From an uncultured Granulosicoccaceae bacterium (lineage in GTDB: Bacteria > Pseudomonadota > Gammaproteobacteria > Granulosicoccales > Granulosicoccaceae): 64,000 nucleotides of DNA. The stretch covers positions 62,001 through 126,000 of the forward strand of contig CALISD010000007.1 of NCBI GenBank assembly GCA_938041955.1. The letters run 5' to 3'. Both the position numbers and the translations under genes were made by a program. Below, piece after piece: positions 7,933 to 17,342 of this stretch (its first letter is position 1; each line of letters starts with the position of its first letter). The notes below the pieces were generated by a model. It made no database searches. It saw nothing but the letters and a program-made list of their open reading frames with translations, and was not told the DNA's origin.

Positions 7933-9996
7933 TTGAAAGGATTCACACTATCATCTGGCATCGGGAAAATACCCTATATCGAACGTTTTATCGGTGTTGA
8001 TACACTGAGCCGAAACCCTTTAGTGATGGGGCGTCAGAGCTGCAAAGCAGTATATTCGTGGGGTCATAAGCCCTACAGTAAGCTCGCAGGTTTAGTGGCT
8101 AATGTATTTGGTCGGCAGCACATTCGACTTGAAGATGGGTTTGTATGTTCCTACGGTCGCAGTGCTCGTCGAACAAAATATTCAATCGTCAGCGACCCCG
8201 TGGGTATCTACTACGATGCTACGACACCGTCGCGATTAGAGAATATCTTAAACGGTCTTGATACTGATTCATGGCAACTGTCGGATCTCGATGTTATGCG
8301 TGAAGCAGAATATCTAATGCGCCGCACAGTTGATGAGAATATTAGTAAATATAATATCGCCACCGACACAGCGTTTGCCGCCAATGACGGGGCTTCTTTT
8401 GTATTGGTGATTGACCAGACAGTGGGTGATCAATCAGTACACTACGGTGGTATGCAGCAGGCTGATTTTGATGTGATGCTGGAGCGGGCGTTGTCTGAGC
8501 ATGCTGCGGATGAAGTGCTTGTGAAAGTACATCCAGATGTACTGGCGGGTAAGAAAGAGGGGTATTTGTCAAAACAGGCCAAAGACCGTGGTGTGAAGTT
8601 GATCACGGGGGATATTAGTCTGCATCATCTCTCTCAGTGCAAAAAGGCTTATGTTGGTACCTCGTTGTACGGTTTTGAACTGTTAATGAGAGATGTTCCG
8701 GTGGTGTGTTTTGGTCAACCATTTTATTCAGGGTGGGGTGTAACTGAAGACAATAAGCCGGTGTCAAGACGTAAACACAAGCGCACGTTACTTGAACTTT
8801 TTATTGCCGCCTATGTGTTGTACCCCAGGTACATTGATCCTGTTACCGGCGCTGATTGTGAACTGTCTGATATTATTGATCATGTTTCGGAGCAGAGGCG
8901 ACAACTCGATCGTGTGGGAACGAACTATCACTTAGTAGGCTTTACACCCTGGAAACGAAAATACGTTAACCGCTACGTGATGGCGGGTGAATATAATCAT
9001 CAGCATATCGCTATTAACGATTTGGAGGGAATGCCGGCAACCTCTGCGAATGATGCGGCCTCGGTATTGGTGTGGGGGCGGGCGGCACCTGAGAGTGAGG
9101 CGGAACAGATTCTGGGGCGTCATCGTGTGGCGCGAATGGAGGATGGCTTTGTACGATCAGTCGGACTCGGTAGTAATTTCACTGCGCCTCGTTCACTGGT
9201 GGTGGATGATATTGGAATCTATTTTGATGCCACCCGGCCGTCGAGAATAGAGCAGTTGCTGCAGCACCGTGACTGTAGTGATGACGAAGTAAAACGCGCC
9301 GAATCCCTCATTGAATTGCTGCTTGAGAACCGGATTAGTAAATACACTCATAGCGATGTCGGTGATGTTGATCAGTCTTTCTATGTCGACAAGCGTGTGT
9401 TGTTGGTGATCGGGCAGGTATATGGTGATGCGTCTTTGCGCTACGGGACAGAAGCGGTCGATAGCAATTTTAAGCTTTTACAAAAAGTCAGAGAAAATAA
9501 CCCGGCGGCTGTGGTGGTTTATAAGCCGCATCCCGATGTAGTGAGTGGTAACCGATCTGATGGAATTGATAATTATGATGACATTATTGATTTGTGCGAT
9601 CACATCGAAACTGAACTTTCGATAGAGGTCACGCTAAATCTGTGTGAACAGGTGCACACATTGACCTCTCTTGCAGGCTTGGAAGCGCTACTTTGCGGCA
9701 AAAAGGTCGTTACATATGGTAAGCCGTTTTATGCTGGCTGGGGGCTAACGGATGACTGGTGCGACTTCGAAAGACGTACCCGTAAGCGAACTCTGGCCGA
9801 ACTGGTGTACCTGTGTTACATCGAATATCCAAGTTACCTTGATATTGAATCTGGTGAGATGACCAGTGTTGAGAAAACTATTTATGCGTTGGTCAAAGAG
9901 CGCGAAATGAATAGTGGTTCCATCACTGCGAAAGGACTAAAAAAATACGTGAACATTGTTCGCAATATAAGAAAAGGTCTTACTTATGCCGCGTAA
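7933..9996 (+). CDS. kpsC: Capsular polysaccharide beta-Kdo transferase KpsC
   Basis: Adds Kdo residues to the lysophosphatidylglycerol anchor on which group 2-type capsules are built. The 687-residue protein is an internal duplication, as in KpsC: YSWGHKPYSKLA plus RLEDGFVCSYGR near residues 40-75 is echoed by RMEDGFVRSVGLG near residue 400. Each half ends with a Q-P-F-Y-S-G-W-G or K-P-F-Y-A-G-W-G motif and an R-x-x-x-R-T-L-x-E-L motif. The start is probably TTG at 7933, because the residues from there match the usual KpsC opening and no ATG lies in frame until residue 32. kpsS overlaps its end by 11 bases. Confidence 0.92.
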   Translation: MKGFTLSSGIGKIPYIERFIGVDTLSRNPLVMGRQSCKAVYSWGHKPYSKLAGLVANVFGRQHIRLEDGFVCSYGRSARRTKYSIVSDPVGIYYDATTPSRLENILNGLDTDSWQLSDLDVMREAEYLMRRTVDENISKYNIATDTAFAANDGASFVLVIDQTVGDQSVHYGGMQQADFDVMLERALSEHAADEVLVKVHPDVLAGKKEGYLSKQAKDRGVKLITGDISLHHLSQCKKAYVGTSLYGFELLMRDVPVVCFGQPFYSGWGVTEDNKPVSRRKHKRTLLELFIAAYVLYPRYIDPVTGADCELSDIIDHVSEQRRQLDRVGTNYHLVGFTPWKRKYVNRYVMAGEYNHQHIAINDLEGMPATSANDAASVLVWGRAAPESEAEQILGRHRVARMEDGFVRSVGLGSNFTAPRSLVVDDIGIYFDATRPSRIEQLLQHRDCSDDEVKRAESLIELLLENRISKYTHSDVGDVDQSFYVDKRVLLVIGQVYGDASLRYGTEAVDSNFKLLQKVRENNPAAVVVYKPHPDVVSGNRSDGIDNYDDIIDLCDHIETELSIEVTLNLCEQVHTLTSLAGLEALLCGKKVVTYGKPFYAGWGLTDDWCDFERRTRKRTLAELVYLCYIEYPSYLDIESGEMTSVEKTIYALVKEREMNSGSITAKGLKKYVNIVRNIRKGLTYAA

Positions 9997-11332
9997 TATT
10001 CTTATGCTCCAAGGGCCAGTGGGACCTTTTTTTAAGAAATTCTCACGCCAACTTGAAAGCCGCGGACATAACGTTCTCAAAATAAATCTCAATGGTGGTG
10101 ACTTCTACTACTTTCATAGTGGTAAATTCCTAAATTTCAATTCAAACACAAGTGTATGGCCTGCCTGGATTGAAAGCGTGATGGTGGGTCGGAAAATTGA
10201 TCGAATGTACTTGTTTGGCGATTGTCGTCGATACCATCGCCAGGCGATCGAGATAGCGCGTAGATTAGGCGTTGAAGTTTATGTTTTTGAAGAGGGCTAC
10301 GTGCGTCCTAACTACGTTACCTTGGAAAAAGACGGTGTAAACGGTTTTACCAGTGCCTGTGAAAAAGAGGGTTTTCACCAGCGTTTAGAGAGCACCACGC
10401 TCGAAAGCAACGATGTTCCCTCTGAGCCTGTAGCAAATGTGTTCAGACGTGCAGCGCGGCATTGTGTGCAATATTATCTTGCTGCCTCTGTATTGAGTGG
10501 AATGTTCAAACACTATGAGCACCACCGCAGTTTGAATATTTTCACCGAAGGCCTGTATTGGGCAAGATCCGGGTTAAGGAAGCTTACTTACCGGTTTACC
10601 GAGCGTAAACTTGGAAAATACCTGTTATCTGGCAAGGAAAAGTATTTCCTTTTGCCATTGCAAGTTCATAACGACATGCAAGTGAAGCAGCATTCCGAGT
10701 TTTCCAGTATTGAGAAGTATCTGGAACATGTAATCAGTTCTTTCTCAGCTGCTGGCAAAGATGGCTACTCTTTAGTCGTTAAGCACCATCCTTATGATCG
10801 AGGGTATAAAAACTATGCAGCGATCATAAAGAAGATGGCGCTTGTGTATGGTTTGGAGAATCGATTGCACTACGTGCACGATACCGATTTGCCCGGGTTG
10901 CTGCAAAATGCTGAGGGCTCTGTGCTAATAAACAGTACTGTTGGGATTTCATCGCTTTATCATGATACCCCTGTGAAGTCACTTGGTGATGCGATTTATG
11001 ATATTGAAGGGCTAACTTATCAAGGTGAACTTGAGTCATTCTGGGATAACCCTGGAGAGATTGATCGAGACCTTTTTAAGAAGTTCCGGCGTTATTTAAT
11101 AGACAAGACACAGGTCAATGGTAGTTTGTACACCAACGTTCATCACTGTGATGAATCAGGGTTGAACTGGCCTTCTGAATTGGCTGAAGAGCATTACGGG
11201 GAAAGTACTAAAAGTGTCACTAGCGGTACAGCGGGCAGTATTATTGATCTTGAAGAGCATAAGAAAAGCCTGGAAGAGAATCTGGAGCAGCCTGACTACG
11301 TCACGGTGCCTGCTGAAAAAGTAGCTGTTTAG
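9986..11332 (+). CDS. kpsS: Capsular polysaccharide beta-Kdo transferase KpsS
   Basis: Adds the first Kdo to the phosphatidylglycerol-type anchor; KpsC then extends the linker. The opening ILMLQGPVGPFF, the VYVFEEGYVRPNYVT segment near residue 100 and VKHHPYDRGY near residue 265 are typical of KpsS/Capsule_synth proteins. LINSTVGISSLYH near residue 310 is the late donor-site motif. The 448-residue length is at the long end for the family because of an acidic tail after about residue 395. It overlaps kpsC by 11 bases, so translation is probably coupled. It is the last plus-strand gene of the capsule locus and converges on the proton-channel operon. Confidence 0.9.
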   Translation: MPRNILMLQGPVGPFFKKFSRQLESRGHNVLKINLNGGDFYYFHSGKFLNFNSNTSVWPAWIESVMVGRKIDRMYLFGDCRRYHRQAIEIARRLGVEVYVFEEGYVRPNYVTLEKDGVNGFTSACEKEGFHQRLESTTLESNDVPSEPVANVFRRAARHCVQYYLAASVLSGMFKHYEHHRSLNIFTEGLYWARSGLRKLTYRFTERKLGKYLLSGKEKYFLLPLQVHNDMQVKQHSEFSSIEKYLEHVISSFSAAGKDGYSLVVKHHPYDRGYKNYAAIIKKMALVYGLENRLHYVHDTDLPGLLQNAEGSVLINSTVGISSLYHDTPVKSLGDAIYDIEGLTYQGELESFWDNPGEIDRDLFKKFRRYLIDKTQVNGSLYTNVHHCDESGLNWPSELAEEHYGESTKSVTSGTAGSIIDLEEHKKSLEENLEQPDYVTVPAEKVAV

Positions 11333-11359: not shown

Positions 11360-12574
11360 TTAGCTTCTTAGATAGTCCTCAAAACGAATATTGCCTCCTC
11401 TTGCAAGCACTTCGAGTTGGTGGTGAATTGAACGTTCCCCGGAAATCGACTGGATGGCATCGTAGACCTTACTTAGTGGCTTTTCACTAATTGTATTGAT
11501 GAGTTCTTCGTCAATTTTGCAACAAGACAGTAAAGTAATGCTCTTATTGCAGCCGGTATAGTGACAACGCTCACACCCGTTGGCTGTATTAAAAGATTGT
11601 TCCGGATATTCGCCATCGATCTGTGTGTTTTCCAATAGCCATTGTGTCTCTCTGGTTGACAATGTATGAAAGTCTGCGCAATGAGGGCATATCAGTGGCG
11701 CAGGCCGTAATTCCACTACGGCTTGAAAATAAGAGAGTAGGCGGCTATTAAAGAGTTTTTTGTTCGTGAGGTGATGAAGCGCATGTGCGGCGGTGTCTGA
11801 CGTTATGAAAATATTCGCGCTCCTTTTTTCATCGAGTAGAGCGAAAATTATCTGATCTTCTAAAGTCGGGTCGTCTTCTATATTTACGAAGACTCTATCG
11901 GCAAATTTGGTGCAATGCACCACACGCGAAGGTGAGTCTATATTTCCCGCCATTTCAAACTGGCTGATGCGAGGTATGTTGGATATCGCGCTTGACTCTA
12001 TCGACACGATCTTGTGTTCAACATGACTGGATTCACCAAGCATCGCGTAGTAGATCTGATTTAGCGTGAATCGATCGTTGCAGGTATACAGTGTGAGACC
12101 GCGAGGCCCTGAGTGCAAAAGTGTTCTGAGTGTGTCAACGTCGTATGGCAGCATATTCGTTTGGTCGAGTGTGCCTGGAACGCGAATTTCACACGGTACG
12201 AGGGATAGGCTTTGACCATATGCTGTTTCACAGAATCGTAATTCCAGTGTGTGGATTTCCGCCGCAACACGGATGCGAACTTTGCGGCGGGAAAATGGCT
12301 TGTCAAACTCTATCTGCAACTCTGAAAGAATTTCTACGAGCAGCGAGCCCGATGGGTATTTTGATTCTGTTAGTGTCCCGTTTATTCGGCAGCGAATTCT
12401 ACAGAGAGTTTGTTCCTGTTCAAGGTGAAGTTCTTGTGAAGTGCCGGAAACCAGGGTCAGAAGCTCTTTTGTGAGGACAGCAAGCCCGTTGCCATCATTT
12501 GATGCAGGCAACAGTGGATCGATCTGCGCTGCAGAATGATTGCCGATGCCGGGTTGTTGTGCTCTGTTGCGCAA
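11360..12574 (-). CDS. Degenerate GspE/PilB-like secretion ATPase lacking a P-loop
   Basis: The 404-residue protein can be aligned by eye with type II secretion/type IV pilus ATPases. CRIRCRINGTL (58-68) matches the R-x-R-x-D-G-x-L strand. GPRGLTLYT (156-164) matches the strand before the P-loop. NIEDDPTLEDQIIFALL (231-247) and IFITSDTAAHALHHL (255-269) match the R-D-x-E-T and T-L-H-T-N regions. CPHC (296-299) and CERC (334-337) match the zinc tetracysteine, followed by the usual GC...TGC stretch. The Walker A site itself is replaced by CNDRFTLNQ, with no glycines or lysine, so ATP hydrolysis is not expected. It starts at TTG 12574 and is last in a four-gene operon. A structural or regulatory role is inferred. 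Confidence 0.6.
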   Translation of the reverse strand: MRNRAQQPGIGNHSAAQIDPLLPASNDGNGLAVLTKELLTLVSGTSQELHLEQEQTLCRIRCRINGTLTESKYPSGSLLVEILSELQIEFDKPFSRRKVRIRVAAEIHTLELRFCETAYGQSLSLVPCEIRVPGTLDQTNMLPYDVDTLRTLLHSGPRGLTLYTCNDRFTLNQIYYAMLGESSHVEHKIVSIESSAISNIPRISQFEMAGNIDSPSRVVHCTKFADRVFVNIEDDPTLEDQIIFALLDEKRSANIFITSDTAAHALHHLTNKKLFNSRLLSYFQAVVELRPAPLICPHCADFHTLSTRETQWLLENTQIDGEYPEQSFNTANGCERCHYTGCNKSITLLSCCKIDEELINTISEKPLSKVYDAIQSISGERSIHHQLEVLARGGNIRFEDYLRS

Positions 12575-12637
12575 AGTGCGTTACTGCCGTTTGGTTTGAC
12601 TGTTGTCTACACCCGTTATCGGCAGTCTGGTATTTTC

Positions 12638-13555
12638 CTACGGCAGGGAGGTACACTCATTGTTTTGTGGATTTGAAAGGTGTTCGACGCTTTTAATTAC
12701 CGCGCTCAACTCCACAACATCTGCGCGACGTTGCATGCGAATGTGTCCCTCGCGCTGTGAATGACACAGCGAGCAGAGACTTTCGATAAAGTGAAAGTGC
12801 CGTTGGCTCTGATCTCGTGATGTGTAGTGTGTCTCCAGACAGCGGGGCAGTTCGGATGGTGCAGTTCGTGTGACTGCGCAGGATTTTCCCTGACACACCG
12901 ACCCGGTCAGTTTGCGATAGTGATTGCTAATGACAGACCAGTCGGTCCACAGGTTTTTTGGAATTGCAGTACAGTCCGGAGGAGTGGCGCTGCGTTGTCG
13001 GGTGTAGAACGAATCATCAGATAAGGGTGGCAGGAGTGCACCTGACTGAGCGTTCTTTATTACACCTAGCTCTGCCATCTCTGACACACAGTATTCGCAA
13101 GGCAATAATCTCTGTGTGTTCATATCACACAGAATGCCGGTACGCGTCACATAGCGAAAGGAGAAGCGTGCTGACGGGCTTTGCGAGATTTGCCAGGCGG
13201 TATCGTCCTGCCAGCGTTGTTGGCTATGCGACTGTACCGTCTGACAATTCAGAAAATGGTATCGCGGTAGTTTTTCAATTAGCTTGTCGCTGTCAAAGCC
13301 ACCGCTGAGTGCGTCCTGTCTTAGCAGCGGATCCATGTCTTCGGTGTCAATTGATTGTTCGGCGTCGTACAGCATTACCTTGCACACTGCACCATCCGTT
13401 GTGATCAGATATATTCCTGCTCTTCCGAATACCAGTTCTGCGGGATCGATTCGAAATGGTTCTTGCTTTAGTCTAAAGGCGAGCCCGTCAATGCCCTCGT
13501 TGGCGTCGAGCTGCCGGATAGTCTCTTTGAGTTGAAAAAATCGTGTCAGCTTCAC
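12638..13555 (-). CDS. Cys-rich protein with degenerate HNH-like C-terminus (ZorE-like, tentative)
   Basis: A 305-residue soluble protein. A middle segment has H100/C104 (YHFLNC), then RYV near 134, then C153/C156 (CEYC), looking like a zinc ribbon. The C-terminus from W203 reads W-x-x-I-S-x-x-Y-R, then C221 and C226, H243, then LCSLCH (260-265) and GH near 271. This spacing resembles HNH nuclease domains with C-x2-C, HH and C-x2-CH zinc-finger motifs. The second His of HH and the Asn of HNH appear lost, so activity is doubtful. It overlaps the OmpA-domain gene by four bases, fixing the operon. Zorya type II carries an HNH protein (ZorE) in this position; that comparison is inference. Confidence 0.5.
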   Translation of the reverse strand: MKLTRFFQLKETIRQLDANEGIDGLAFRLKQEPFRIDPAELVFGRAGIYLITTDGAVCKVMLYDAEQSIDTEDMDPLLRQDALSGGFDSDKLIEKLPRYHFLNCQTVQSHSQQRWQDDTAWQISQSPSARFSFRYVTRTGILCDMNTQRLLPCEYCVSEMAELGVIKNAQSGALLPPLSDDSFYTRQRSATPPDCTAIPKNLWTDWSVISNHYRKLTGSVCQGKSCAVTRTAPSELPRCLETHYTSRDQSQRHFHFIESLCSLCHSQREGHIRMQRRADVVELSAVIKSVEHLSNPQNNECTSLP

Positions 13556-14250
13556 GATAGATTTTCTGCCTCTTTGATAATGCGATAGATACGCTCTTCG
13601 GTTTTAGTAACCACTTTAAATTCAACTCGACGACTGCGGTCGATATCTTCGGTGCCAAGCTCGGTCATAATGGGTTTGGCAGAGGATAATCCATTTGCTC
13701 GTAATACAGTTTGCAGCCAGGCTCTGTACTGCTCGCTCTCTTGCATATCGTAAATATAATTAAGGACTGAAAAGGATCTATTCTGCGATAGTCTGGCGTT
13801 TTTTATGTAGGCTGCGCGTGGGGTGGTAGCGCCGCGCCAATCGGAAGAGGTATGCCCTTCAACGCGAACTTCGTCGATTTCTCCAATGAAGTCTGTGTGA
13901 TTCAGGATGGTGAGGTAACGTGGAAAGAAATCGTTGAGTATTGTTTTAAATTTATTGTTCATCGCAGCACTGTTGAGCGAGAAGAGAACCTCAGGTTCAT
14001 TAAACCGGAACGTGTTGTCAGACAGGATCTCAGCGCCCCATGTTGGTAGGTCGTTTTTGAACTCTTCGCGTAAAGCGCGGTTTAGCTCATTGCGGGATTT
14101 TTCAAACTCAACCGCAATGTTGGCGATGGCCAATTTTTCCTGATCAGTCTGATACATAAAAGCGACTGCGATCAAAAGGAATATCATCATTAACCCGGAC
14201 ATCATGTCAGAGATAGATATCCATTCGCTTTGTTCGTTGCGTACTTTCAT
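13552..14250 (-). CDS. OmpA-domain stator protein, ZorB-like
   Basis: Single-pass inner-membrane protein that would anchor a proton channel to peptidoglycan. A short cytoplasmic start is followed by a transmembrane helix at about residues 13-33 that contains an Asp (D15 in ISDMMSGL), the expected proton-carrying residue of MotB/TolR/ZorB proteins. The periplasmic part ends in an OmpA/MotB-type domain (about 90-222) with VEGHTSSDW, RLSQNRS and DRSRRVEFKV, which together form the peptidoglycan-binding signature. The 232-residue length fits ZorB. Its ATG overlaps the stop of the channel gene by four bases (ATGA), so the two are translationally coupled. Confidence 0.8.
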   Translation of the reverse strand: MKVRNEQSEWISISDMMSGLMMIFLLIAVAFMYQTDQEKLAIANIAVEFEKSRNELNRALREEFKNDLPTWGAEILSDNTFRFNEPEVLFSLNSAAMNNKFKTILNDFFPRYLTILNHTDFIGEIDEVRVEGHTSSDWRGATTPRAAYIKNARLSQNRSFSVLNYIYDMQESEQYRAWLQTVLRANGLSSAKPIMTELGTEDIDRSRRVEFKVVTKTEERIYRIIKEAENLS

Positions 14251-15302
14251 TCTTCATCAACCATTAACAGGCGATAGCGTTCAAGGAATGCTTGATAGTC
14301 GCGGGCGAACTTGTTGGTCAGTCCGGATAATGTGTTTTCTAGCTCGCGCATAGATTCCGGCAGTTGTCGTCCGATATCCTGGGTAAGCTTAGCCATTGCC
14401 TCTGATTGAACCTGCATACCGTTCTGCACGCCAATGAATCCGGTTTGCATGGTGGAAAATGCCTTGGATGCCTGAGTACTTAAGTTTGAAAACTCCTGCA
14501 TCTGGTTCTTCAGCGTTTCTGATTGCGTCTGTTGAAGACTGATCATATGGCCGAGGTTTTCATACACTGCAACAGTTTCGCTGTTGCGTGATGCTATAGA
14601 TTCAATTGTTTCTTTTGATTGCAAGAGACTCTGCGAGATGTTTTCAAGTAACTGGGTGTTGTCAGTTACTGAATCTCGATAGCTGTTTTGCCATTCCAGT
14701 AGGCTGGATACGCCGCTGTTAAGTTGTTTGAAGTTGTCGCCAAATTGTTCGGTTAAGTTGCTGTTGAATTCGGTGATCACTTTTTCCAGTGACTTTACAA
14801 TTTCTTCGCTTGCACTTTTTGAAAGCGAATCAAGTGCCGTTGTTATTGTTTGATTGGTGGTTTCGAAGTGTTTGTCGAGTTGGCGCTGGGACTGAAAAAG
14901 ATCATTTCTGATCTCGCTGAGTGTTTGCAGTTTTTCAAGTGATTCCAGTTGATCAAGCTTTTCACTAATCAGGTTAAGTGCATCCACTTCATCTTCGGAT
15001 GTGTTATTGCGCAAGCGATAAAAAATAGCCAGCGCAACAGAAAGACCCATTCCAACCACTGAAGTTAAAAACGCGATCTTCATTCCGTCTAGTAGTCGCG
15101 GGACGCTGCCACGTATGTCTGCGGCATCGAAACCCAGTAAGCCTATAAAAACACCAACAAAGGTTCCCAGTACGCCAACGCTAACGATAATTGACCGAAA
15201 GTCGCGATGGTTTTTAGAAAAGGAAGTGACAAGATCAACAAGGAATAGAAGAGCCATCAATGCGACAAAGCACATTGTTATAGCTGATGGAGCATTCAGC
15301 AT
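14247..15302 (-). CDS. MotA/TolQ/ExbB proton-channel protein with long coiled-coil tail, ZorA-like
   Basis: Inner-membrane channel subunit. Three hydrophobic helices are seen (about residues 5-27, 38-60 and 75-97). The last two carry the family motifs LGTFVGVFIGLLGF and LLDGMKIAFLTSVVGMG. About 255 residues then form a heptad-rich cytoplasmic coiled coil (for example EKLDQLESLEKLQTL and NQMQEFSNLSTQASKAF). This compact three-helix channel with a long tail is the layout of ZorA, not of flagellar MotA or ExbB. It is first in the operon: an OmpA-domain partner, a Cys-rich protein and a GspE-like protein follow on the minus strand. A defence role is inference; other uses of a proton-driven motor are possible. 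Confidence 0.78.
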   Translation of the reverse strand: MLNAPSAITMCFVALMALLFLVDLVTSFSKNHRDFRSIIVSVGVLGTFVGVFIGLLGFDAADIRGSVPRLLDGMKIAFLTSVVGMGLSVALAIFYRLRNNTSEDEVDALNLISEKLDQLESLEKLQTLSEIRNDLFQSQRQLDKHFETTNQTITTALDSLSKSASEEIVKSLEKVITEFNSNLTEQFGDNFKQLNSGVSSLLEWQNSYRDSVTDNTQLLENISQSLLQSKETIESIASRNSETVAVYENLGHMISLQQTQSETLKNQMQEFSNLSTQASKAFSTMQTGFIGVQNGMQVQSEAMAKLTQDIGRQLPESMRELENTLSGLTNKFARDYQAFLERYRLLMVDEE

Positions 15303-15505: not shown

Positions 15506-17035
15506 CTACTTGAAGTAGATGGGCTGTACTTCGCCGGATTCAATCTTCTTGCGCCATAATGCCGGCCCGGTGGTGTGTACGGCTTCGCCGCTACTATCAA
15601 CTGCAACGGTGACAGGCATATCTTTAACGACGAACTCATGGATCGCTTCCATACCGAGTTCTTCAAACGCAATGATACGTGCAGAAGTGATCGCCCGTGA
15701 TACAAGGTAGGCGGCACCACCGACAGCCATTAAATACACTGATTGGTGTTTCTTGATTGCATCGATGCCGGTCGGACCGCGCTCGGCTTTACCCACCATG
15801 CCTAGAATTCCAGTTTTTTCAAGCATCATGTCGGTGAATTTATCCATCCGTGTAGAGGTTGTTGGGCCAGCGGGTCCAACGGCTTCGTCGCGTACTGCAT
15901 CGACGGGCCCGACGTAGTAAATCAGTTTTCCGGTTAGATCTACCGGTAGTGGCTCACCTCGATCCAGTATCTCTTTGATTCTCTTGTGTGCCGCATCGCG
16001 ACCTGTAAGTAACGTGCCGCTAAGTAGTAGAGTATCTCCGGGTTTGAAAGTTTTGGTTTCTTCTGCGGTGAGCGTATCGAGATTAATTGATCGAGCGTTA
16101 GGTCCGACGTCCCAGGTGATTTTTGGCCAGTCGTCAAGCGAAGGTGGTGTTTGAAGATCAGCGCCCGAGCCGTCAAGTACAAAGTGCGCATGCCGGGTGG
16201 CTGCGCAGTTGGGGATCATCGTGACCGGTAGTGATGCAGCATGGGTGGGATAGTCTGCAATTTTTACGTCCAGCACGGTTGTTAATCCGCCAAGACCTTG
16301 TGCGCCAATTCCTAGTGCGTTTACTTTTTCGAATATCTCGAGTCGCAGTTCTTCTGTTCTGGTCGAGGCGCCACGGGCTTTAAGCTCATGGATATCTACT
16401 GCATCCATCAATACTTGTTTGGCCAATACGGCGGACTTTTCTGCGGTTCCGCCAATGCCGATGCCGAGCATCCCCGGTGGACACCATCCGGCGCCCATGG
16501 TCGGTACAGTTTTAACCACCCAATCGACAATGCTGTCACTCGGGTTGAGCATTACCATTTTGGATTTGTTTTCTGAACCACCGCCTTTAGCCGCGACGTC
16601 GACTTCGATCTTGTCGCCTTCGACGACTTCCATATGGATAACTGCCGGGGTGTTGTCACCGGTGTTGCGCCGTGCGCCGGCCGGGTCCATTAATATTGAC
16701 GCTCGTAGTTTGTTGTCCGGATTAAGGTAGGCACGCCGTACACCCTCATTGATCATGTCGATCGGACTCATCGTGGCGCCGTCCCACTGGACATCCATGC
16801 CGATCTTTATAAAGACGGTGACGATGCCGGTGTCCTGGCAGATGGGTCGATGCCCTTCGGCACACAGCCGTGAATTGATAAGAATTTGCGCCATTGCATC
16901 TTTGGCGGGTTTGGACTCTTCTCTCTCATAGGCTGCGTGCACCGCGTCGACGAAGTCTTTAGGGTGGTAGTAGGAGATAAACTGCAGTGCATCGGCGACG
17001 CTATCTATCAGATGATCTTGATGAATTCGGGACAT
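15506..17035 (-). CDS. Class I fumarate hydratase
   Basis: Iron-sulfur enzyme of the TCA cycle that interconverts fumarate and malate. The 509-residue protein shows the three cysteines expected to bind the [4Fe-4S] cluster, in CQDTGIV, in PNCAATRH and in GWCPPGM. It also has the GPTTSTRMD and GPTGIDAIK motifs of the beta part. The start is ATG at 17035 (MSRIHQDHL); the open frame runs on upstream for 76 codons with no homology-like content. It is divergent from trpE and probably monocistronic. Length and motifs fit the single-chain FumA/FumB type rather than split alpha/beta enzymes. Confidence 0.92.
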   Translation of the reverse strand: MSRIHQDHLIDSVADALQFISYYHPKDFVDAVHAAYEREESKPAKDAMAQILINSRLCAEGHRPICQDTGIVTVFIKIGMDVQWDGATMSPIDMINEGVRRAYLNPDNKLRASILMDPAGARRNTGDNTPAVIHMEVVEGDKIEVDVAAKGGGSENKSKMVMLNPSDSIVDWVVKTVPTMGAGWCPPGMLGIGIGGTAEKSAVLAKQVLMDAVDIHELKARGASTRTEELRLEIFEKVNALGIGAQGLGGLTTVLDVKIADYPTHAASLPVTMIPNCAATRHAHFVLDGSGADLQTPPSLDDWPKITWDVGPNARSINLDTLTAEETKTFKPGDTLLLSGTLLTGRDAAHKRIKEILDRGEPLPVDLTGKLIYYVGPVDAVRDEAVGPAGPTTSTRMDKFTDMMLEKTGILGMVGKAERGPTGIDAIKKHQSVYLMAVGGAAYLVSRAITSARIIAFEELGMEAIHEFVVKDMPVTVAVDSSGEAVHTTGPALWRKKIESGEVQPIYFK

Positions 17036-17342
17036 GGTGTTTTGGATTCGTGTCAGAGAATAAAGGTAATATAGCCTGTGTCGGCAATCTTCGCATCTGG
17101 CAGCGTCTGTTGGGTGAAAACCACAGTGGATTCCTTCACGAAAAGCGAGCGTCCGCTTGACTCGCTTTGGTGCTTGTGGGTAAATGCTCGGAACTGTTTG
17201 GGTGCCGTGCCAGTGACAAGGGCTGAGATGATTTTTCCATATTTGACAATGGCTGCATGGCAAGCGGCGTTTGGTTGGCGAAGCGAAAGATGCCTGTTCG
17301 CTACCCTGACTATTGTCTCCATCTCATCGCACCCAGAAGCCA
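17036..17342. other. Divergent intergenic region, fum / trpE
   Basis: This 307-base stretch must hold the promoters of the fumarase gene and of trpE. A perfect TTGACA at 17243-17248 on the plus strand has no reasonable -10 at 16-18 bases. I see no convincing tandem-Trp leader peptide or terminator/antiterminator pair. Open frames crossing it on both strands look like chance. Confidence 0.5.

What the first reader, a model, noticed from the sequence alone, without database searches (positions are those of the whole stretch)
11360..15302. Zorya-like proton-motor operon with non-canonical partners
Four minus-strand genes in tight order encode a ZorA-like channel with a long coiled-coil tail, a ZorB-like OmpA-domain stator, a Cys-rich protein with a degenerate HNH-like end, and a GspE/PilB-like protein without a P-loop. 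The first three overlap by four bases at each junction; the last follows after 63 bases. Established knowledge: Zorya type I pairs ZorAB with ZorC and ZorD, type II with an HNH protein ZorE, type III with ZorF and ZorG. A secretion-ATPase relative is not a component I know from any of them. Inference: this may be an undescribed Zorya-type defence variant, or a motor system used for something else.
Basis: partly seen in the sequence, partly recalled or inferred. Interest (0 to 1): 0.88.

Follow-up and report, generated by a model that had tools for sequence, protein, structure and literature searches.

The report
Zorya motor with nuclease-dead ZorE
The operon is a relative of the Zorya type II anti-phage motor whose DNA-cutting subunit appears to have lost its active site while the motor stays intact; the fourth gene, a secretion-ATPase relative, is an unrelated resident neighbour.

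Summary
The first three genes are ZorA2, ZorB2 and a divergent ZorE (PADLOC hits for all three; hhalign of the third gene's family to canonical ZorE, E=2e-55), so this is a type II Zorya operon. The P-loop-less GspE-like gene stands at the same site, next to fumarase, in six congeners without Zorya. In about 100 ZorB-bearing stretches it adjoins ZorAB only here and in one congener, at the same site.

What is unusual is ZorE. The motor keeps its ion and peptidoglycan residues, and both ZorE zinc sites survive. But the HNH general base His226 (E. coli numbering) is Tyr/Leu/Ile and Asn238 is lost in all 8 members of one ZorB clade, while 39 of 39 other ZorE keep both. Mutating these residues abolishes standalone Zorya defence in E. 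coli (PMC13192584). The clade is under purifying selection. In two genera its zorA overlaps minE.

My reading: a Zorya II offshoot with a non-cutting ZorE adaptor. Whether it still defends against phage or was domesticated for envelope or division work is open.

The parts
14247..15302 (-). zorA2-like: MotA-type channel subunit with a cytoplasmic coiled-coil tail (351 aa). Thr47 and Thr80/Ser81 are candidates for the conserved Ser/Thr ring (my placement).
   Evidence: PADLOC ZorA2 E=1e-54; PDB 8vvi ZorA E=3e-24 over residues 13-345; T47, T80, S81 invariant in the clade alignment
13552..14250 (-). zorB2-like: one TM helix with the ion-binding Asp15, then an OmpA-like peptidoglycan-binding domain (His133, Ser135, Arg207; the last placed by offset)
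   Evidence: PADLOC ZorB2 E=1e-88; PDB 8vvi ZorB E=2e-47; Asp aligned with D21 of solved ZorB II; residues invariant in the clade; functional residues from PMC11890865
12638..13555 (-). zorE-like: N-terminal zinc domain kept, HNH domain with lost catalytic residues (305 aa)
   Evidence: PADLOC ZorE2 E=5.5e-13; hhalign to canonical ZorE E=2e-55; residue table; AlphaFold pLDDT 83
13088..13555 (-). ZorE N-terminal (DUF8245-type) zinc domain, residues 1-156: His100, Cys104, Cys153, Cys156 kept
   Evidence: nearly invariant in 38 ZorE; H90 of E. coli ZorE essential (PMC13192584)
12743..12952 (-). HNH remnant, residues 202-271: Tyr189->Leu202, His226->Tyr244, Asn238->Phe256; Cys221, Cys226, Cys261, Cys264, His265 and His271 kept
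   Evidence: a canonical ZorE model finds HNH folds in the PDB weakly, this model finds none
11360..12574 (-). Resident P-loop-less GspE/PilB-like gene; judged NOT part of the system
   Evidence: at the same site without Zorya in six congeners; no P-loop in any of 9 homologues aligned
15506..17038 (-). Upstream flank: class I fumarase, marks one side of the locus
   Evidence: Pfam Fumerase; conserved in congeners
9986..11332 (+). Downstream flank: kpsS-like capsule synthesis gene, marks the other side
   Evidence: Pfam Capsule_synth E=7e-77

Best explanation
A three-gene type II Zorya-derived operon (zorA-zorB-zorE). ZorA5ZorB2 would form a peptidoglycan-anchored, ion-driven inner-membrane motor with a cytoplasmic tail (inferred from homology and kept residues). 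When the envelope is disturbed the motor would engage and recruit ZorE, as in known Zorya II. Here ZorE has lost the HNH general base and active-site Asn but kept both zinc sites and the N-terminal domain, so it most likely acts as a non-cutting adaptor (DNA or protein binding) and not as a nickase. The GspE-like fourth gene is an older resident of the site and not part of the machine. Shown: family assignment, residue losses, clade structure, purifying selection, independence of gene 4. Inferred: loss of nuclease activity, recruitment, adaptor role.
For: Family membership. Motor residues kept: against PMC11890865. Active site: 39 of 39 other ZorE covering the region keep His226 and Asn238, 0 of 8 in this clade do; Tyr189 is Leu/Phe in 7 and unaligned in 1, numbering checked on an E. 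coli ZorE. Y189F, H226A and N238A/L239A abolish standalone Zorya defence (PMC13192584). The 8 loci are one group on the ZorB tree, SH-aLRT 89. ZorE dN/dS 0.08-0.18. In canonical ZorE the HNH part is better conserved than the N-terminus (43 v 34%), in this clade the reverse (33 v 37%). Gene 4 independent. One genome, G095, carries both a canonical Zorya II and a dead-ZorE copy.
Against: No biochemistry: an altered catalytic site could still cut. K231 is also lost in about ten ZorE with intact His/Asn, so that loss means little. dS is near saturation, so dN/dS is rough. Only 8 loci, and those with a public name are all metagenome-assembled Gammaproteobacteria. The tree is the quick one. In the window's own genus the operon is patchy (2 of 14), as expected of an accessory defence system.
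Confidence: 0.62

Rival explanations
1. Domesticated motor: the ZorABE of this clade no longer serves phage defence but an envelope or cell-division role, using the peptidoglycan-anchored motor and a non-cutting ZorE.
For: In two genera zorA overlaps minE (TGATGATG, TAATG) and a fructokinase-type gene follows zorE. In another genus all 4 sampled species carry it, with flanks shared in 4 of 6 pairs. ZorB pairs at 70-90% identity share flanks in 5 of 7 dead-ZorE pairs and 0 of 5 canonical pairs. Nearest relatives with intact HNH lie beside recombinases or an AAA_13 gene. No defence island among the window genes tested.
Against: Patchy in the window's genus, 2 of 14 genomes. Related hosts share flanks anyway, and the canonical sample at that identity is only 5 pairs. 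Different sites in different genera argue against one conserved pathway.
Confidence: 0.33
2. It is a working anti-phage system in which dead ZorE blocks phage DNA by binding, or retains an atypical nuclease activity.
For: ZorABE gene order and motor intact; patchy occurrence in the genus; zinc sites and His247/His253 equivalents kept.
Against: Residues whose mutation abolishes standalone defence in E. coli are missing (with 37); no defence genes found nearby; HNH fold no longer recognised.
Confidence: 0.35
3. Decaying Zorya II on its way to loss.
For: ZorE diverges faster than ZorB; repeated absence in congeners; one member (G095) has lost most HNH residues.
Against: All reading frames intact in 8 species; the same catalytic losses shared across a clade; dN/dS well below 1; zinc ligands and a GGF motif kept.
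Confidence: 0.12
4. One reading: the GspE-like protein is a true partner of ZorAB.
For: Adjacent in the same order in two species of the genus.
Against: Present at the site without Zorya in six congeners and near fumarase in two other genera; adjacent to ZorAB nowhere else among the loci examined; much less conserved between the two species (34% v 74.5% for ZorB).
Confidence: 0.04

Closest known systems
Zorya type II (ZorA2-ZorB2-ZorE; E. coli, Sulfuricurvum kujiense 8vvi)
   Same: gene content and order, motor and peptidoglycan-binding residues, ZorE domain layout with both zinc sites
   Different: HNH general base and Asn lost, Tyr189 lost; short ZorA (about 330-390 aa); ordinary chromosomal neighbourhood
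Zorya types I and III
   Same: ZorAB motor
   Different: no ZorC/ZorD or ZorF/ZorG here; ZorA and ZorB score far better against type II models
ZorAB with a short DUF8245-type protein in Oceanospirillales and Cellvibrionaceae (found here)
   Same: ZorAB followed by a ZorE-related protein from which no nuclease activity is expected
   Different: the HNH domain is absent altogether (150-210 aa) and not merely inactivated; different ZorB branch
GspE/PilB secretion ATPases
   Same: fourth gene has the T2SSE fold and CxxC zinc motif
   Different: no P-loop in any homologue at this site; unrelated to the motor operon

Membership tests
Zorya type II | ZorA2-type channel with cytoplasmic tail | tested here: met
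   PADLOC E=1e-54; 8vvi ZorA aligned over residues 13-345
Zorya type II | ZorB2 with ion-binding Asp and peptidoglycan-binding domain | tested here: met
   Asp15, His133, Ser135 and probably Arg207 kept
Zorya type II | ZorE homologue in the operon | tested here: met
   PADLOC E=5.5e-13; hhalign E=2e-55
Zorya type II | HNH active site in ZorE (effector is a nickase) | tested here: not met
   His226->Tyr, Asn238->Phe, Tyr189->Leu; Pfam HNH models silent
Zorya type II | Protects against phage | not testable with these tools
   needs plating assays
Zorya type II | Location in a defence island (common, not strictly defining) | tested here: inconclusive
   window neighbours look like housekeeping genes by inspection; 10 scanned proteins gave only weak PADLOC hits to AAA/kinase-type proteins; not every gene was scanned
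Zorya type I / III | ZorC+ZorD or ZorF+ZorG | tested here: not met
   no such hits in the operon
GspE/PilB-like protein as a Zorya component | co-occurs with ZorAB at independent loci | tested here: not met
   only the same site in two congeners
TolQR/ExbBD/MotAB housekeeping motors | closest relatives are TolQ/ExbB or flagellar MotA | tested here: not met
   Pfam MotA_ExbB only 18 bits, below cut-off; ZorA2 184 bits

The most novel reading that the evidence does not exclude
The Zorya II motor has been domesticated at least once by inactivating ZorE: in this clade, including copies coupled to the minCDE genes, a peptidoglycan-anchored ion motor with a non-cutting ZorE adaptor does an envelope or division job in place of damaging DNA during phage infection.
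Probability: 0.3. Interest if true: 0.82.

Novelty: new variant of a known kind. Interest (0 to 1): 0.6.

Why it matters
Published work makes the ZorE nickase the effector of Zorya II (PMC11890865), and the one large ZorE phylogeny I found kept only variants with a recognisable endonuclease domain (PMC13192584), so a lineage that keeps the motor and drops the cutting has been outside view. It is a natural separation-of-function experiment: if it still defends, cutting is not essential to Zorya; if it does not, these motors can be redeployed, and the overlap with minE says where to look. It also warns that automatic annotation will label such loci as ordinary defence systems.

Tried and rejected
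GspE-like gene as a partner: rejected by synteny and by a profile search of the ZorB loci. Degeneration of ZorE in one genome only: rejected, eight species share the losses. Viral contigs as a source of the clade: scan found none. PDB search with ZorE by sequence: nothing. By fold: the window model gives nothing significant; the canonical model gives weak HNH matches, none below E=0.001, so a lead only. K231 loss as evidence of inactivation: dropped, since ZorE with intact His/Asn lose it too. The careful ML tree of ZorB did not finish; the quick tree was used. A first flank-tree run failed on a thread setting and was repeated. A literature search for Zorya with MinCDE found one methods paper, which I did not read; a search for DotN as a precedent for an inactive HNH adaptor found nothing.

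Full report
Check of the observation. The four minus-strand ORFs, the two four-base overlaps (ATGA, GTGA) and the 63-base gap are as described. PADLOC assigns the first three to ZorA2 (E=1e-54), ZorB2 (E=1e-88) and ZorE2 (E=5.5e-13); Pfam assigns the fourth to T2SSE (E=4e-9). NCBIfam agrees for ZorA and ZorB, below its curated cut-offs. The closest solved structures are the Zorya II ZorA and ZorB of 8vvi.

The fourth gene is a bystander. In the same genus a P-loop-less GspE-like gene stands, in the same orientation, between fumarase and kpsS in G012, G002, G013, G011 and G009, and after fumarase at a contig end in G004, in all six without Zorya; relatives lie near fumarase in two other genera. 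G007, G003, G006 and G005 have neither it nor Zorya at the site. Only the window and G010 have fumarase-zorABE-GspE-like-kpsS. A profile of this gene family finds no other copy in about 100 ZorB-bearing stretches, a few of them duplicates. None of the nine aligned homologues has a Walker A motif. So a ZorABE cassette sits upstream of an older resident gene.

Age of the insertion. A tree of flanking genes puts the window's genome and G010 in opposite halves of the genus. Their ZorA (69%) and ZorB (74.5%) are as diverged as the trp genes (70-75%). That fits one old acquisition at this site followed by at least five losses; old exchange between species by flanking recombination is not excluded. 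In the order only these two genomes carry the clade, of 48 searched (the third hit there, G029, has a canonical ZorE).

The third gene is ZorE without its active site. Its family aligns with canonical ZorE over the full length (hhalign E=2e-55). I mapped residues on an annotated E. coli ZorE, whose numbering agrees with the preprint PMC13192584. Of ZorE proteins covering the region, 39 of 39 outside this clade keep His226 and Asn238. In the window and seven relatives His226 is Tyr (6), Leu or Ile, Asn238 is never Asn, and Tyr189 is Leu or Phe where it aligns. In that preprint H226A, Y189F and N238A/L239A abolished standalone Zorya defence. The N-terminal zinc site (His90 equivalent and three Cys) and the second zinc site with His247/His253 equivalents are kept in the window. 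Pfam HNH models see some canonical ZorE but not this clade. AlphaFold models of both are confident (pLDDT 83 and 87); Foldseek gives weak HNH-nuclease matches for the canonical one (best E=0.02) and none for the window's.

The clade and its history. On the ZorB tree the eight dead-ZorE loci form one group (SH-aLRT 89, quick tree), nested near loci with intact HNH. The nearest intact relatives share the CxxxxC spacing seen in this clade, so the catalytic loss looks derived. Selection is purifying: ZorE dN/dS 0.08-0.18 where measurable, with near-saturated dS. The HNH part, the better conserved half in canonical ZorE, is the less conserved half here.

Context. All four species of one genus carry the clade, with flanks shared in 4 of 6 pairs. 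In two further genera zorA overlaps minE and a pfkB-type kinase follows zorE. Nearest relatives with intact HNH lie beside serine recombinases or an AAA_13 gene. Window neighbours look like housekeeping genes, and the ten scanned gave only weak PADLOC hits. One genome carries a canonical Zorya II and a dead-ZorE copy on different contigs, which suggests different jobs.

Mechanism. Known Zorya II, by its authors' model: ZorB binds peptidoglycan on envelope disturbance, ion flow drives ZorA, and ZorE is recruited to the membrane and nicks DNA (PMC11890865). The motor residues needed for this are present here. I infer the same sensing and recruitment, with ZorE as a non-cutting adaptor. Whether the output is phage defence or a domesticated envelope or division role cannot be decided from sequence; I give them about equal weight.

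Verdict. A new variant of Zorya type II with a predicted nuclease-dead ZorE; the secretion-ATPase partner is an artefact of adjacency.

Noticed in passing
L126:6685-9229; also L134, L133, L131, L135, L123, L160: Oceanospirillales and Cellvibrionaceae carry zorA-zorB followed by a 150-210 aa protein homologous only to the N-terminal domain of ZorE (hhalign E=6e-20), often at shared chromosomal positions: a second nuclease-less Zorya-like set.
   Followed up: partly
L107:1328-3989 and L076:2935-5689: zorABE directly follows and overlaps minE in two genera, with a fructokinase-type gene next.
   Followed up: partly
L117, L118, L121, L129, L137, L138, L146: Thiotrichaceae (Parabeggiatoa, Marithrix, Thiomargarita) have zorB before zorA and no ZorE detected nearby.
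   Followed up: no
L151, L159, L171: Helicobacteraceae carry ZorAB with an about 800-aa ZorA and no ZorE detected.
   Followed up: no
L078:5026-6668 and L080:3266-4818: The genus with four dead-ZorE species also has a second ZorAB pair beside an EF-G-like gene (fusA by inspection), without ZorE.
   Followed up: no
window 11360-12574; L026, L027, L028, L031, L030: A P-loop-less GspE-like paralogue conserved next to fumarase, fast evolving (34-43% between congeners); its own function is unknown.
   Followed up: partly
L081:5812-9834: A ZorA-like ORF of 1340 aa, implying a very long tail.
   Followed up: no
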